Origin: an uncultured Lachnospiraceae bacterium
GTDB lineage: Bacteria; Bacillota; Clostridia; Lachnospirales; Lachnospiraceae
Direction: 5' to 3'
Length of the DNA: 64,000 bases
Assembly: GCA_902779445.1 (NCBI GenBank)
Contig: CACZBM010000023.1
Location: 1-64,000 of the forward strand
Shown here: piece after piece, positions 35,013 through 46,821 of the stretch
How positions within the stretch are numbered: position 1 is the first letter of the stretch
Layout: each line of letters begins with the position of its first letter
Made by a program: the position numbers and the translations under genes
Notes under the pieces: model-generated
What the model saw: only the letters and a program-made list of their open reading frames with translations
What the model was told of the DNA's origin: nothing
Database searches by the model: none

Positions 35013-35888
35013 ATGATCCGATCTATAGAAGAATTGGAAAAAAATCATCCCTGCTTCGGAGGATGCAGATTTAACGCAGGACGGATACACCTGCCGGTGA
35101 GTGCAGGATGTAATATAGCCTGCAGGTTCTGCGACAGAAAGATAAATGATGTGGAGATCCGCCCCGGTGTGACTTCTAAAGTAATTAGTCCGGATGAAGC
35201 AAACAGCTTTATAGATAAGGCTCTGGAGATGGTACCGAATCTCAAAGTTGCGGGAATAGCAGGTCCGGGAGATACACTTGCATCAGATAAGGCTTTTGAG
35301 ACTTTCAGGAAAATATCGGAAAAACATCCGGAACTACTAAAGTGTATGAGCACAAACGGGCTTCTCCTTTATGAAAGGGCAGATGAACTGATCGATGTAG
35401 GGATCGACACCCTGACAGTAACCGTTAATGCAGTGGATCCGGAAATAGAGGCAAAGATAAACGAATACATCATATTCCACGGGAAATTCTATATGGGAGA
35501 AGCCGGAGCGAGGATCCTTATAGAAAACCAGCTGAAAGGAATAAAGAAAGTGGCAGAGGCAGGAGTCACGGTAAAGGTAAATACGGTGCTTGTCCCGGGC
35601 ATTAATGATGAACATATAGAGATCATTGCTAAAACCGTAAAAGAAGCAGGGGCAGTTATTTATAATATCATCCCGCTGATCCCACAGCATAAACTGAGCC
35701 ATATAAGCTGTCCAACTTGTGAAGAGATTGAAAAGGCAAGAGCCGCTGCTGAGAAGCACATAAAGGTTTTCAGACACTGTGCCCACTGCCGGGCGGATGC
35801 AGTAGGAGTCCCCGGATTATCGGAGTACAGCAAGCAGGTATTTCAGGGCAGACTAAAAGATGTTAAGGAAACATTTTCGCATGGATGA
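35013..35888 (+). CDS. nifB: NifB-type radical SAM protein
   Basis: This is predicted to fuse Fe-S clusters into the carbide-containing 8Fe core (NifB-co) used in nitrogenase cofactors. The 291-residue protein is the short form without a fused NifX domain. It has HPCFGGC near residues 12-18, the radical SAM motif CNIACRFC (33-40), CMSTNG at 111, a PGI loop, and CAHCRADAVG near the C-terminus, all NifB hallmarks. The usual DCxNESRPGV stretch is changed to INDVEIRPGV, losing one cysteine. First gene of a 12-gene operon; TGAGG precedes the ATG. Its presence argues that at least one downstream component-1 protein carries an L-cluster-like cofactor. Confidence 0.9.
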   Translation: MIRSIEELEKNHPCFGGCRFNAGRIHLPVSAGCNIACRFCDRKINDVEIRPGVTSKVISPDEANSFIDKALEMVPNLKVAGIAGPGDTLASDKAFETFRKISEKHPELLKCMSTNGLLLYERADELIDVGIDTLTVTVNAVDPEIEAKINEYIIFHGKFYMGEAGARILIENQLKGIKKVAEAGVTVKVNTVLVPGINDEHIEIIAKTVKEAGAVIYNIIPLIPQHKLSHISCPTCEEIEKARAAAEKHIKVFRHCAHCRADAVGVPGLSEYSKQVFQGRLKDVKETFSHG

Positions 35889-36243
35889 TAACAAAATCAG
35901 GGTGGCAGCAGCGAGTTCAGATAACTTGTGTATAAACCGGCACTTTGGCAGAGCAGAGAATTTCTGTATAGCAGATATATACGGAAACGGTAGTGTGATC
36001 CGGGTGGAAGAAAGAAAAGTCATACCGGTATGCGGCATGGGACAGCATGATGACGGGGAGCTTAAAAATGCAGTGGAAGCCCTTTCAGACTGTGATGTGG
36101 TACTGGCTGTGAGGATCGGATTCGGAGCCGCAAGAGAACTGGAAGAAAACGGCATCACGCCGCTGGAGGTTTCAGGGATGATAGATGAGTCACTGCAAAA
36201 GCTTAGCAGCTACATAAATAAATTTAAGAAAAGAGGAGAATGA
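35881..36243 (+). CDS. NifX/NafY-type cofactor-binding domain protein
   Basis: This is a 120-residue protein of the dinitrogenase iron-molybdenum cofactor family (NifX, or the NifB C-terminal domain). VAAASSDNLCINRHFGRAENF at the N-terminus and the CDVVLAVRIGFGAARELEENGI segment are typical. Such proteins hold or carry NifB-co-like clusters between NifB and the final enzyme. It overlaps the end of nifB by 8 bases, so translation is coupled. The start was placed at ATG 35881, where homology begins. It probably represents the NifX half of a split NifB. Confidence 0.85.
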   Translation: MDDNKIRVAAASSDNLCINRHFGRAENFCIADIYGNGSVIRVEERKVIPVCGMGQHDDGELKNAVEALSDCDVVLAVRIGFGAARELEENGITPLEVSGMIDESLQKLSSYINKFKKRGE

Positions 36244-36247
36244 AAAA

Positions 36248-45295: not shown

Positions 45296-45303
45296 GGAGA
45301 AGT

Positions 45304-46821
45304 ATGAAGAATTATGATCAGAATGAACCCCTTGTACGGGATATAAGATTATCTGCTGCGGACAGCTTCTATGGAAAGGGATGTGATCTCCTGAAATGTG
45401 CAGAAGGTGGTTGCCTGTGCAATAAGAACAGGAGCTTCTGGCAGGCTAATTCATGTCAGCTTTCCCTGTCTCTTATGATGGCATCTACCATTGAGAATGC
45501 TGCCATTATTATTCACAGCCCCGTAGGATGCGGAGTCAATATGAGTACTCTGTACAGTAATGTGACAGGCGGCAGAAATAAAAGGGGTCTCGGACAGAAT
45601 AATCTTGTATGGCTCTCCACTAATATGCAGAAGGTGGATATCATTAACGGAGGAGAGAAAAAACTTCGTGAACTTATACGATATACGGACAGGGAATACA
45701 GACCGGAATTGATCTTTGTTGTGGCGGCATGTGCTCCAAGTATAATAGGGGATGACGTTGATGATATCGTAAACAGTGAGAAAGAGAACATAGCGGCGGA
45801 TCTGGCAGCTATTCATTGTCCGGGTTTCAAGTCAAGAGTTGTAGCCAGTGCGTATGATTCGTTTTATCACGCTCTGATAAGGCATCTGAAATTTGAGCCG
45901 GAACCGTATATAGACTATAACCCCGATAATTATGCAAACCCTTATAACGGGGATCAGACGGCACTTTATAGATATAATAAGGCACGGACTGTGAATCTCT
46001 TTAATGCCACCAGCATGAATCCTGATGATGAAAATGAAATTGTCCGGCTCCTGCAGGCCCTAGATCTCAACGTACAGATCTATACCGAGTACAGTTCACG
46101 GGATAAGCTCAGGTTTATCTCAGAGGCATCCTTAAATATCAGTATGTGTGATGTTCATGATGACTATATATTAAAATATCTGGAAGAAAAATATGGTATT
46201 CCATATGTGATCCAGGGCATGCCCCTTGGGAAAAAGGCTATACGTGAATGGTTACTTAAGATCGCAGGATTCTTCGGTAAGGAGAAAGATGCGGAAAAGA
46301 TATGCGACTACGAAGAGAAAAGACTGGACGAAGCACTGAAACCCTTCCTTAAAACCATAAGGGGAAAGAGGGTCATTATGGGAGGTGGTGTTGTCAGGAT
46401 AGCAGAAGAAGCACGTATGCTAAAAGAACTCGGGATGGACATCATAACCATCAGGCCGTATCACTATGATAATGAGGCGGGAGGGGTATACAGTGAAGTG
46501 GCGGAAGAATTTCCGGATACTCCCGTGGCGGTAAGTACACAGGTTTTTGAGCTTATAAATCAGCTTAAAAAATATAAACCTGATATTGTAGTTGAGCACG
46601 CAGGTAAACACGGATGGATCTCAAAGTGCGGTATTCCATCAGTCAATCTTTTCAGCCAGGCCCGTCCTTTCTTTGGTTACGCAGGCGAGTACGCGTTTAT
46701 AAAGAATCTTGCGTTCCACCTGCAGAATAATAGCTACGCCAAAAATCTTAGCAAGAACGTCCGTCTTCCATATCACAAGAACTGGTATGAGAAGGACCCA
46801 TACAGCTATATTAAAGATTGA
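45304..46821 (+). CDS. Nitrogenase component-1 alpha-like subunit (NifD-like), pair 2
   Basis: This 505-residue protein has P-cluster-type cysteines C51, C76 (HSPVGC) and C143 (AACAPSIIGDD). C282 lies in ASLNISMCDVHDDYILKYLEEKYGIP, which aligns almost residue by residue with the alpha-Cys275 region of NifD. Gln191 becomes V180, His195 becomes Y184, and His442 becomes F450. An N-terminal cysteine-rich stretch (C27, C32, C37, C39) parallels that of pair 1. The start at 45304 follows GGAG after the K-like stop; a longer frame from 45271 lies inside the K-like gene. Last gene of the operon. Substrate unknown. Confidence 0.87.
   Translation: MKNYDQNEPLVRDIRLSAADSFYGKGCDLLKCAEGGCLCNKNRSFWQANSCQLSLSLMMASTIENAAIIIHSPVGCGVNMSTLYSNVTGGRNKRGLGQNNLVWLSTNMQKVDIINGGEKKLRELIRYTDREYRPELIFVVAACAPSIIGDDVDDIVNSEKENIAADLAAIHCPGFKSRVVASAYDSFYHALIRHLKFEPEPYIDYNPDNYANPYNGDQTALYRYNKARTVNLFNATSMNPDDENEIVRLLQALDLNVQIYTEYSSRDKLRFISEASLNISMCDVHDDYILKYLEEKYGIPYVIQGMPLGKKAIREWLLKIAGFFGKEKDAEKICDYEEKRLDEALKPFLKTIRGKRVIMGGGVVRIAEEARMLKELGMDIITIRPYHYDNEAGGVYSEVAEEFPDTPVAVSTQVFELINQLKKYKPDIVVEHAGKHGWISKCGIPSVNLFSQARPFFGYAGEYAFIKNLAFHLQNNSYAKNLSKNVRLPYHKNWYEKDPYSYIKD

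What the first reader, a model, noticed from the sequence alone, without database searches (positions are those of the whole stretch)
35013..46821. Nitrogenase-like operon with two component-1 pairs, one NifH, an amino-acid-type importer and CysK
Seen: twelve tightly spaced genes on one strand, in the order nifB, nifX-like, nifH, receptor, two permeases, K-like, D-like, ATPase, cysK, K-like, D-like. nifE, nifN and nifV are absent. Known: nitrogenase-like systems outside N2 fixation exist, notably the methylthio-alkane reductase MarBHDK, which breaks C-S bonds of thioethers for sulfur salvage. Inference: this operon imports an organosulfur compound, reductively splits it, and fixes the sulfide into cysteine. 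Having two component-1 pairs behind one NifH suggests two substrates, two sequential steps, or a maturase plus an enzyme. I do not know a characterised system with this gene set.
Basis: partly seen in the sequence, partly recalled or inferred. Interest (0 to 1): 0.95.

Follow-up and report, generated by a model that had tools for sequence, protein, structure and literature searches.

The report
Two-reductase anaerobic sulfur-salvage operon
A clostridial bacterium carries an operon with two different nitrogenase-like enzymes, an amino-acid-type importer and its genome's only recognised CysK-type cysteine synthase, and it likely uses them to strip sulfur from imported organic compounds and make cysteine without oxygen, rather than to fix nitrogen.

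Summary
The operon is real and as described: twelve co-directional genes at 35013-46821, gaps of at most 24 bases. All four component-1 proteins match methylthio-alkane reductase (MAR, MarDK) best among solved structures; neither pair falls in NifDK or NifEN. Pair 1 nests inside the MAR clade (D 100/100, K 97.1/91). Pair 2 forms its own clade (97.9/99; 99.2/100), marked by C-x-x-H-D at the cluster cysteine (87 of 87 sequences; 0 of 76 MAR, 0 of 44 NifD/E). Both pairs keep all six P-cluster cysteines, the [Fe8S9C] cysteine and a Loop-I histidine. In 68 named pair-2 loci, cysK lies directly upstream of pair 2 in at least 40 of 50 scorable cases, and an importer is near in 53 of 65, mostly sulfonate/nitrate-like; here it is amino-acid-type, nearest YtmK/cystine systems. 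The host genome (98% complete) has no PF01077 or PF01507 reductase match, and its only CysK is in this operon. The sulfur hypothesis is supported; 'maturase plus enzyme' is weakened. Substrates, order of steps and activity are inferred. Prior art (MAR, isethionate reductase, a spirochete nifKD-cysteine synthase operon) covers the theme; my searches found neither this two-pair set nor the pair-2 clade described.

The parts
31804..32997 (+). nifS-type cysteine desulfurase (upstream Fe-S assembly; likely accessory)
   Evidence: TIGR03402 601 > 530.75; NifS-IscU-LysR upstream of NifB also in L197, NifS downstream of NifH in L064
33037..33501 (+). nifU/iscU-type Fe-S scaffold (likely accessory)
   Evidence: TIGR03419 201.3 > 187.9
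33524..33919 (+). Rrf2-family regulator
   Evidence: TIGR00738 117.9 > 73.3
33929..34834 (+). LysR-family regulator, likely regulator of the operon
   Evidence: LysR matches, none over an equivalog cut-off among those listed; LysR homologues (best listed 41-76% identical) lie within 10 kb in 8 of 65 pair-2 loci
34852..34883 (.). terminator-like 14-pair stem followed by TTTTTT
   Evidence: 9 terminator-like sites found versus 10.1 expected in shuffles, so this rests on stem length only
35013..35888 (+). NifB-like radical SAM protein, predicted to build the [Fe8S9C] precursor
   Evidence: TIGR01290 278 bits, below cut-off; CxxxCxxC, HPC, ExRPG, AGPG, TxTxN and CxxCRxDAxG present (motif names recalled)
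35860..36243 (+). NifX-like cluster carrier
   Evidence: PF02579 66.9 bits
36248..37096 (+). NifH, the single Fe protein
   Evidence: TIGR01287 460.5 > 394.35; P-loop and both cluster-cysteine motifs (motifs recalled); only strong NifH in the genome
37116..37967 (+). substrate-binding lipoprotein of a polar-amino-acid-type importer
   Evidence: PF00497 88.6 bits; best solved match B. subtilis YtmK 2o1m 104 bits, then Lmo2349 101 bits; LAGC lipobox
37982..38692 (+). permease 1
   Evidence: best NCBIfam match cystine permease 123.9, below cut-off 300; TIGR01726 47.7 > 42.2
38689..39402 (+). permease 2
   Evidence: best NCBIfam match cystine permease 92.9, below cut-off 300
39421..40758 (+). K1, component-1 beta-type subunit of pair 1 (MAR clade)
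   Evidence: MarK 9d9u_C 321 bits; in the MarK clade; cysteines equivalent to MarK C32/C56/C121 kept
40772..42217 (+). D1, component-1 alpha-type subunit of pair 1 (MAR clade)
   Evidence: MarD 9fmg_A 271 bits; MarD clade 100/100; model matches 9fmg_A, TM 0.86/0.88
42242..42997 (+). ATPase of the amino-acid-type importer
   Evidence: best NCBIfam match TcyN 306.5, below cut-off 406
43010..43948 (+). CysK, O-acetylserine sulfhydrylase
   Evidence: TIGR01139 424.6 > 350.95; only CysK/M over cut-off in the genome
43961..45295 (+). K2, component-1 beta-type subunit of pair 2
   Evidence: MarK 9d9u_C 268 bits; K2 clade 99.2/100; all three P-cluster cysteines kept
45304..46821 (+). D2, component-1 alpha-type subunit of pair 2 (separate clade, C-x-x-H-D motif)
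   Evidence: MarD 163 bits in two stretches; D2 clade 97.9/99; motif; model matches 9fmg_A, TM 0.80/0.86

Best explanation
This twelve-gene operon encodes one Fe protein (NifH), one NifB-like protein, two nitrogenase-like component-1 pairs, an amino-acid-type importer and a cysteine synthase, and it likely works as an oxygen-free sulfur-salvage line in which the importer would bring in a cysteine-type thioether, pair 1 would split it to a thiol, pair 2 would strip that thiol's sulfur off as sulfide, and CysK would fix the sulfide into cysteine. Shown by sequence: gene content, MAR-clade placement of pair 1, a separate clade for pair 2, complete predicted ligand sets for a P-cluster and an [Fe8S9C]-type cluster in both pairs, NifB motifs, recurrent cysK-K2-D2 adjacency, no PF01077 or PF01507 match in the genome, and a single genomic CysK. 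Inferred: that NifB and NifX load both pairs with the Fe-only cluster; that one NifH feeds both pairs with ATP-driven electrons; the substrate (an S-alkyl cysteine such as S-methylcysteine is the best guess from the YtmK/cystine-like importer); the sequential order; and sulfide as the product of pair 2.
For: Best solved match of all four component-1 proteins is MarDK; structure models agree. Trees put D1/K1 in the MAR clade and D2/K2 in a separate clade, away from NifD/E/K. P-cluster cysteines (MarK C32/C56/C121; MarD C66/C91/C158), C270 and a Loop-I histidine are present in both pairs. cysK lies directly upstream of K2 in at least 40 of 50 scorable loci, against 4 CysK among 180 ORFs more than 6 kb away. 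Of 65 pair-2 loci, 53 have an importer gene and 13 a PatB-type C-S lyase within 10 kb; 22 of 27 fetched MAR-clade regions carry a sulfur-amino-acid gene. The importer is nearest to YtmK and cystine systems. Genome: no PF01077, no PF01507, cysE present, one CysK. MAR releases methanethiol (PMC12552129), which CysK would not turn into cysteine (recalled chemistry), so a further step to sulfide would explain CysK.
Against: No activity, expression or ligand data. Most pair-2 loci (55-57 of 65) show no MAR-clade D within 10 kb, though many contigs are short, and no MAR-clade match was found in 6 of 12 pair-2 genomes of the order survey, so pair 2 often works without pair 1. Most pair-2 loci have a sulfonate/nitrate-like importer, so a thiol is not an obvious common substrate. 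The genome has three strong PF01053 proteins, one of which might turn methanethiol into methionine directly, making pair 2 unnecessary for pair 1's product. Co-occurrence of the two clades in 392 genomes is only moderate (6 genomes; p = 4.6e-4, uncorrected for kinship). The D1 Loop-I histidine is shifted by one residue from MarD H429. The importer passes no cystine cut-off. Only one family each was searched for sulfite and for APS/PAPS reductases.
Confidence: 0.45

Rival explanations
1. Two parallel reductases for two different imported organosulfur substrates share one NifH and one NifB; pair 1 yields a thiol that goes to methionine, pair 2 releases sulfide straight from its own substrate for CysK.
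For: The two pairs often occur apart, each with importer and sulfur genes nearby. Other genomes combine other pairs: Treponema saccharophilum has two MAR-clade pairs near one nifH; L180, L188, L196 and L198 have a MAR pair, a NifH and a third kind of pair.
Against: The window operon carries only one importer and one CysK, and the two pairs are in one tight co-directional run.
Confidence: 0.3
2. Pair 2 is a cofactor maturase (NifEN-like scaffold) for pair 1.
For: Nitrogenase systems use a DK-like pair as scaffold; a third pair type in relatives (L196, L018) lacks the Loop-I histidine.
Against: K2 keeps all three P-cluster cysteines and D2 keeps C270 and a Loop-I histidine; pair 2 is usually found without pair 1; R. 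rubrum MAR was made in active form by co-expressing MarB with MarHDK in a strain disrupted in nifD and anfHDGK (PMC12552129).
Confidence: 0.06
3. Pair 2 is an isethionate-reductase-like (Isr) enzyme that releases sulfite from a sulfonate brought in by Ssu-type importers.
For: Ssu-like importer genes lie near pair 2 in 40-43 of 65 loci; Isr uses SsuCAB and is said to occur in intestinal bacteria (PMC11423573).
Against: IsrD keeps one of three P-cluster cysteines and neither FeMoco ligand, and IsrB is not NifB-like (PMC11423573); D2 keeps all cysteines and the operon has a NifB with all six motifs looked for. This genome has no PF01077 match, nor have 7 of the other 11 pair-2 genomes searched. 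The window importer is amino-acid-type.
Confidence: 0.07
4. One of the pairs is a group-IV nitrogenase that fixes N2 without NifEN.
For: Group-IV N2 fixation is discussed for Endomicrobium and Heliophilum (PMC9147875 and PMC4995403, passages); NifH passes the nifH model.
Against: The NifD residues called essential for N2 reduction (V70, Q191, H195; PMC12552129) are not kept at 191 and 195 (W/F in D1, V/Y in D2), and NifD H442 has no equivalent; neighbours are sulfur genes. The Endomicrobium/Paenibacillus Nfa clade was not in my trees.
Confidence: 0.04
5. cysK and the importer are housekeeping genes that happen to sit in the operon and say nothing about the reductases.
For: In this genome the operon cysK is the only CysK, so it would also serve general cysteine synthesis.
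Against: cysK-K2-D2 adjacency recurs in at least 40 of 50 loci, from Lachnospiraceae to Treponema, Synergistaceae and Fusobacteriaceae; in the order survey each of the other 11 pair-2 genomes has at least two CysK/M over the cut-off, so their operon copy looks dedicated.
Confidence: 0.05

Closest known systems
Methylthio-alkane reductase MarBHDK (Rhodospirillum rubrum; PDB 9fmg, 9d9u)
   Same: Best solved match of all four component-1 proteins; pair 1 is in its clade; same P-cluster cysteines and C270, W195/F199/H375 in D1; a NifB-type MarB; sulfur salvage.
   Different: Two component-1 pairs, an importer and cysK in one operon; D1 subclade has R-x-H instead of R-H in Loop I; pair 2 lacks R428, W195 and F199 and has a C-x-x-H-D motif.
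Isethionate reductase IsrBHDK with SsuCAB (Rhodobacter capsulatus)
   Same: A nitrogenase-like enzyme feeding sulfur assimilation together with an organosulfur importer.
   Different: IsrD lacks two of three P-cluster cysteines and both FeMoco ligands; IsrB is not NifB-like; product is sulfite (PMC11423573).
nifK-nifD operon with cysteine synthase in the termite-gut spirochete P. corrugata (PMC13067680, passage)
   Same: Group-IV nifK and nifD in an operon with a cysteine synthase, suggested there to be involved in sulfur metabolism; likely a pair-2 locus (not checked).
   Different: Reported in one sentence of the passage read; no second pair or importer named, nifB and nifH at distant loci.
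MarHDK-like group IV-A genes near mlp methyltransferase clusters with CysK, PatB and others (PMC10418091, passages)
   Same: Nitrogenase-like genes among sulfur amino-acid genes.
   Different: Linked to corrinoid methyltransferase homologues; no two-pair operon described in the passages read.
Bacillus subtilis ytmI operon importer TcyJKLMN (YtmK)
   Same: YtmK is the closest solved binding protein; the operon is listed under unusual sulfur metabolism (PMC2885750, passages); two permease genes and a LysR regulator (recalled).
   Different: The B. subtilis route is aerobic (monooxygenases, recalled); here nitrogenase-like reductases would take that place.
Mo-nitrogenase NifHDK and scaffold NifEN
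   Same: NifH passes the nifH model; same protein superfamily and cluster biology.
   Different: No NifDK or NifEN in the genome; all four component-1 proteins fail the Nif cut-offs and lie outside the Nif clades.

Membership tests
MAR family (pair 1, D1/K1) | Placement in the MarD/MarK clade | tested here: met
   D1+MarD 100/100, K1+MarK 97.1/91; FastTree 1.0 and 1.0
MAR family (pair 1, D1/K1) | Six P-cluster cysteines and cluster cysteine C270 | tested here: met
MAR family (pair 1, D1/K1) | Loop-I R428-H429 | tested here: inconclusive
   R kept, His one residue later in all 8 subclade representatives
MAR family (pair 1, D1/K1) | Active-site W195, F199, H375 | tested here: met
   W195 in 24 of 24, F199 in 23 of 24 and H375 in 24 of 24 MAR-clade representatives. 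H194 is not kept in D1 nor in most of the clade
MAR family (pair 1, D1/K1) | ATP-dependent release of hydrocarbon and methanethiol from thioethers; no Mo or homocitrate | not testable with these tools
   needs purified protein
MAR family (pair 2, D2/K2) | Placement in the MarD/MarK clade | tested here: not met
   separate splits D2 97.9/99, K2 99.2/100; with BchY as outgroup D2 was not recovered as a clade
MAR family (pair 2, D2/K2) | R428, W195, F199 | tested here: not met
   R428 absent (gap; Glu in the pairwise alignment of D2); position 195 is V in 30 of 41 and W in 2 of 41; 199 is Y in 41 of 41 representatives
MAR family (pair 2, D2/K2) | P-cluster cysteines, C270 and a Loop-I histidine | tested here: met
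   (C66 in 39 of 41, the other two gapped fragments)
NifDK nitrogenase | NCBIfam equivalog cut-off or placement in NifD/NifK clade | tested here: not met
   all four far below cut-offs; outside NifD+NifE 100/100 and NifK 100/100
NifEN scaffold | NifE/NifN cut-off or placement | tested here: not met
   NifE split 99.6/100 excludes D1 and D2; NifN was not in the trees
Isethionate reductase Isr | IsrD with one P-cluster cysteine, no C275/H442 equivalent; IsrB not NifB-like | tested here: not met
   feature from PMC11423573; D1 and D2 keep all cysteines, NifB has all six motifs. No IsrD sequence was in hand
Nfa group-IV nitrogenase (Endomicrobium, Paenibacillus) | Placement with NfaDK | not tested
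   no named Nfa sequence was in hand
Tcy/Ytm cystine-type importer | Curated cut-off of a cystine importer model | tested here: not met
   best matches are cystine-type for ATPase and both permeases, all below cut-off; the binding protein's best NCBIfam match is Lys/Arg/Orn (97 bits) with cystine second (73), both below cut-off, and its nearest solved relative is YtmK
CysK | TIGR01139 cut-off and catalytic motifs | tested here: met
   424.6 > 350.95; PAGSVKDR, TSGNTG, GAGTGGT, GISSGA (motifs recalled)

The most novel reading that the evidence does not exclude
Pair 2 founds a third family of enzymes built on nitrogenase-type P and [Fe8S9C] clusters, beside nitrogenase and MAR: a widespread gut-anaerobe desulfurase with a C-x-x-H-D cluster pocket that releases sulfide directly to its operon-mate CysK; in this operon it works in series with a MAR-clade enzyme behind one Fe protein, a two-stage anaerobic reductive desulfurisation of S-alkyl cysteines to cysteine and hydrocarbon, the oxygen-free counterpart of the B. 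subtilis ytmI route.
Probability: 0.35. Interest if true: 0.9.

Novelty: new variant of a known kind. Interest (0 to 1): 0.72.

Why it matters
If right, nitrogenase-type clusters power sulfur salvage widely in rumen, termite and other gut anaerobes, through at least two enzyme clades that can share one Fe protein and one NifB. It gives a sharply defined family (C-x-x-H-D clade next to cysK) in which to test what nitrogenase clusters did before nitrogen fixation. It also warns that a nifH passing the curated nifH model can belong to sulfur metabolism, which bears on nifH-based claims of nitrogen fixation in guts, and it points to an overlooked possible biological source of sulfide and small hydrocarbons.

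Tried and rejected
Rejected: NifDK, NifEN, BchNB/YZ and CfbD identity (trees held NifD, NifE, NifK, BchY and BchZ only); Isr identity (ligands); a known RNA regulator upstream (Rfam at gathering thresholds found only an S10 leader and a tRNA in the window); a clear sigma-70 promoter before nifB (18 sites found in 33900-47000, 26 expected); foreign base composition (operon GC 0.443, window 0.447). The one other genome of the same genus among the 392 sampled (G353, 99% complete) has no PF00148 match; looking for the empty site through the downstream gene found no clear orthologue there (39% identity over part).

Results against: a D-only tree with BchY as outgroup did not recover the pair-2 sequences as a clade (their common node spanned 56 sequences, support 29/58) and showed 15/58 at the D1 node after re-rooting; without the outgroup both are well supported. 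So the root, and whether pair 2 is nearer MAR or nitrogenase, is open; the MAR-pair-2 join was 0.998 for K but weak for D in FastTree. In one search, cysK was not directly upstream in 10 of 50; three of these (L058, L072, L078) show CysK beside K2 and were missed by my ORF filter, seven remain without (L042, L063, L066, L071, L076, L077, L079).

Limits: the genome-contig scan used pair-2 peptides (CAP[SN]IIGD, SAYD[AST]FYH), so it favours pair 2; many contigs are short. Of 68 loci three gave no pair-2 ORF in my gene calling and were dropped from counts (L046, L073, L075); 15 more could not be scored for cysK adjacency. MAR-clade D is counted in 8 of 65; L037 (fragment at the contig end) and L058 show one too. 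Neighbour labels are BLAST matches to representatives; only some representatives were typed by Pfam/NCBIfam, and 'Ssu-like' rests on NMT1/BPD Pfam matches and sub-cut-off SsuA, TauC and NtrB matches. The order survey scored at most 3-4 candidates per genome and my bit thresholds for clade membership were set after seeing the scores. The sequences counted include some genes fetched twice. For trees I dropped ORFs of 700 aa or more and of 330 aa or less, one K2 with undetermined residues, and sampled pair-2 sequences (13 of 26 core D2, 21 K2). Gene labels were partly wrong (reference proteins mis-picked) and were redone.

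
Full report
Observation. The twelve co-directional genes are present exactly where reported, with gaps between -29 and +24 bases. Family scans confirm NifB-like, NifX-like, NifH, SBP_bac_3, two permeases, four PF00148 proteins, an ABC ATPase and CysK. The NifB lacks the fused NifX domain and scores below the curated cut-off (278 versus 343.65), but carries all six motifs I looked for (motif names recalled). 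The host assembly (2.6 Mb, 98% complete) holds no other PF00148 protein and one strong NifH, so there is no NifDK or NifEN. The host is placed in the same family as Butyrivibrio hungatei, inferred because G004, a same-family genome, has a contig of the same length as the named record L060; the one other genome of its genus among 392 sampled lacks PF00148 matches.

What the four component-1 proteins are. Each matches a subunit of the R. rubrum methylthio-alkane reductase best among solved structures: K1 321, D1 271, K2 268, D2 163 bits. D1 and D2 models (mean pLDDT 78 and 81) match MarD 9fmg_A first (TM 0.86/0.88 and 0.80/0.86). A FastTree of 194 representatives of 447 component-1 sequences, some the same gene fetched twice, and IQ-TREE runs on 63 D and 55 K proteins put pair 1 inside the MAR clade (D 100/100, K 97.1/91), in a subclade of its own (100/100 both), and pair 2 in a distinct clade (D2 97.9/99, K2 99.2/100), both outside NifD+NifE (100/100) and NifK (100/100). 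With a distant BchY outgroup the pair-2 clade was not recovered, so the root is unresolved.

Metal sites. The MAR structure paper (PMC12552129; Main, Results, tree methods and part 2 of the extended-data legends read) gives MarK C32/C56/C121 and MarD C66/C91/C158 for the P-cluster, C270 and H429 for the [Fe8S9C] cluster, R428, and W195/H194/F199/H375 around the active site; this numbering fits the PDB sequences. Both window pairs keep all six P-cluster cysteines and C270. D2 aligns a histidine at 429 but lacks R428; D1 keeps the arginine and has the histidine one residue later, as do all 8 representatives of its subclade. D1 keeps W195, F199 and H375, not H194; pair-2 proteins have Y at 199 in 41 of 41 representatives and V at 195 in 30 of 41. 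Pair 2 is marked by C-x-x-H-D starting at the cluster cysteine: 41 of 41 representatives and 87 of 87 sequences, against 0 of 76 MAR-clade and 0 of 44 NifD/E sequences. Both pairs are thus predicted catalytic components rather than a NifEN-like scaffold. Isethionate reductase is excluded as a family by its ligands: its IsrD keeps one P-cluster cysteine and neither FeMoco ligand, and IsrB is not NifB-like (PMC11423573, parts 1-5 of 9 read).

Conservation of the neighbours. A genome-collection scan with the pair-2 profile returned 68 named loci from Lachnospiraceae, Oscillospiraceae, Synergistaceae, Treponema, Fusobacteriaceae, Gracilibacteraceae, Deltaproteobacteria and others, a number of them named as rumen or other gut samples. 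Of the 65 with a called pair-2 D, cysK lies directly upstream of K2 in 40 of 50 scorable loci; three more (L058, L072, L078) were missed by my ORF filter and seven lack it. Among 180 ORFs more than 6 kb away, 4 are CysK. Within 10 kb: SsuA-like binding protein 43 of 65, SsuC-like permease 41, SsuB-like ATPase 40, SBP_bac_3-type 11, PatB-type C-S lyase 13, NifH 33, NifB 33, LysR 8, a MAR-clade D 8 (L012, L018, L031, L061, L064, L071, L074, L077), with L037 and L058 to be added. An importer gene of either type is near in 53 of 65 loci and in 26 of the 28 loci with 5 kb on both sides. Representatives were typed by Pfam and NCBIfam; PatB passes TIGR04350 in L012, the SsuA/SsuC types stay below their cut-offs. 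In 27 fetched MAR-clade regions of the same order, 22 carry a sulfur-amino-acid gene, 16 a CysK and 9 an amino-acid-type binding protein. Across 392 genomes of the order, MAR-clade and pair-2 proteins co-occur in 6 genomes (40 and 12 carriers; Fisher p = 4.6e-4, 0.0023 without the window genome; kinship uncorrected). Several pairs near one NifH recur: two MAR pairs in Treponema saccharophilum pTS2, a MAR pair with a third pair type in L180, L188, L196 and L198.

Importer and genome context. The window importer is nearest to cystine-type systems: binding protein to B. subtilis YtmK (104 bits) and Lmo2349 among solved structures, though its best NCBIfam match is Lys/Arg/Orn, then cystine; ATPase to TcyN and both permeases to the cystine permease; none passes a curated equivalog cut-off, permease 1 passes the polar-amino-acid permease domain TIGR01726. 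B. subtilis tcyJKLMN is listed under unusual sulfur metabolism, and good growth on S-methylcysteine is noted, in PMC2885750 (passages); that TcyJKLMN takes up S-methylcysteine is recalled. The window genome has no PF01077 match (8 of the 12 pair-2 genomes searched have none) and no PF01507 match, has cysE over cut-off, and its only CysK/M over cut-off is the operon's, whereas each of the other 11 has at least two. A C. perfringens study (PMC2940859, passages) describes the same cysE-cysK end of the pathway. If these family searches miss nothing, sulfur has to reach this CysK as sulfide from a reduced or organic source.

Mechanism proposed. Import of a cysteine-type thioether; ATP-driven electrons from the single NifH to pair 1, which cleaves the C-S bond to a thiol and a hydrocarbon (as MAR does, PMC12552129); pair 2 reduces the thiol to sulfide and hydrocarbon; CysK joins sulfide to O-acetylserine. 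NifB, NifX, NifS and NifU supply the clusters. All reaction steps are inferred. The main alternative is two parallel substrates.

Literature. Ten term searches of the held library listed no paper that I could see describing this two-pair operon or the C-x-x-H-D clade; I opened nine of the listed papers, most as passages only. [quoted passage not shown] group IV-A MarHDK-like genes near CysK and PatB (PMC10418091, passages); one NifH-like protein proposed to serve MarDK and a nitrogenase in Heliophilum, with MAR proposed to compensate for missing sulfite reduction (PMC9147875, passages). Human gut nifH work reports abundant cluster IV sequences, most similar to Clostridiales (PMC4995403, passages). 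PMC11659671 (one passage) only cites the Isr paper.

Verdict. The finding is real, the sulfur reading is well supported, the pair-2 clade looks undescribed as such, and the biochemistry is open.

Noticed in passing
L018, L180, L188, L196, L197, L198: A third kind of component-1 pair, mostly beside a MAR-clade pair and NifH, keeps cluster cysteines (three P-cluster Cys and C270 in the L196 D subunit) but lacks the Loop-I histidine in L196 and L018: a candidate scaffold or a different enzyme.
   Followed up: partly
L080 and L111 (Treponema saccharophilum plasmid pTS2): Two MAR-clade pairs, one nifH annotated as nitrogenase iron protein with a nitrogen-fixation term, cysK, an O-acetylhomoserine sulfhydrylase-family gene and an Ssu-like importer on a plasmid; likely sulfur salvage annotated as nitrogen fixation.
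   Followed up: partly
36248-37096: This NifH passes the curated nifH equivalog cut-off although the genome has no NifDK or NifEN, so nifH surveys may count it as a diazotroph.
   Followed up: yes
L025, L073, L074, L078: MtaA/CmuA-type methyltransferase genes (one in L074 typed) lie near pair-2 or outer-group loci, hinting at methylated sulfur compounds.
   Followed up: no
L012, L061, L064, L077, L113-L115 and the window D1: The whole D1 subclade carries R-x-H instead of MarD's R-H in Loop I, a one-residue shift of the predicted cluster ligand.
   Followed up: partly
L152-L171, L174-L178: Several same-order genomes carry low-scoring component-1 pairs beside a NifH with incomplete cluster-cysteine sets in the D subunit, possibly isethionate reductases; not identified.
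   Followed up: partly
46928-48748: 5'-nucleotidase-like protein with a C-terminal LysM match directly downstream; seems unrelated to the operon.
   Followed up: partly
29279-30607: Acid phosphatase / glucose-1-phosphatase-like gene on the minus strand.
   Followed up: partly
58805-58882: S10-Clostridia ribosomal protein leader (Rfam RF03136).
   Followed up: no
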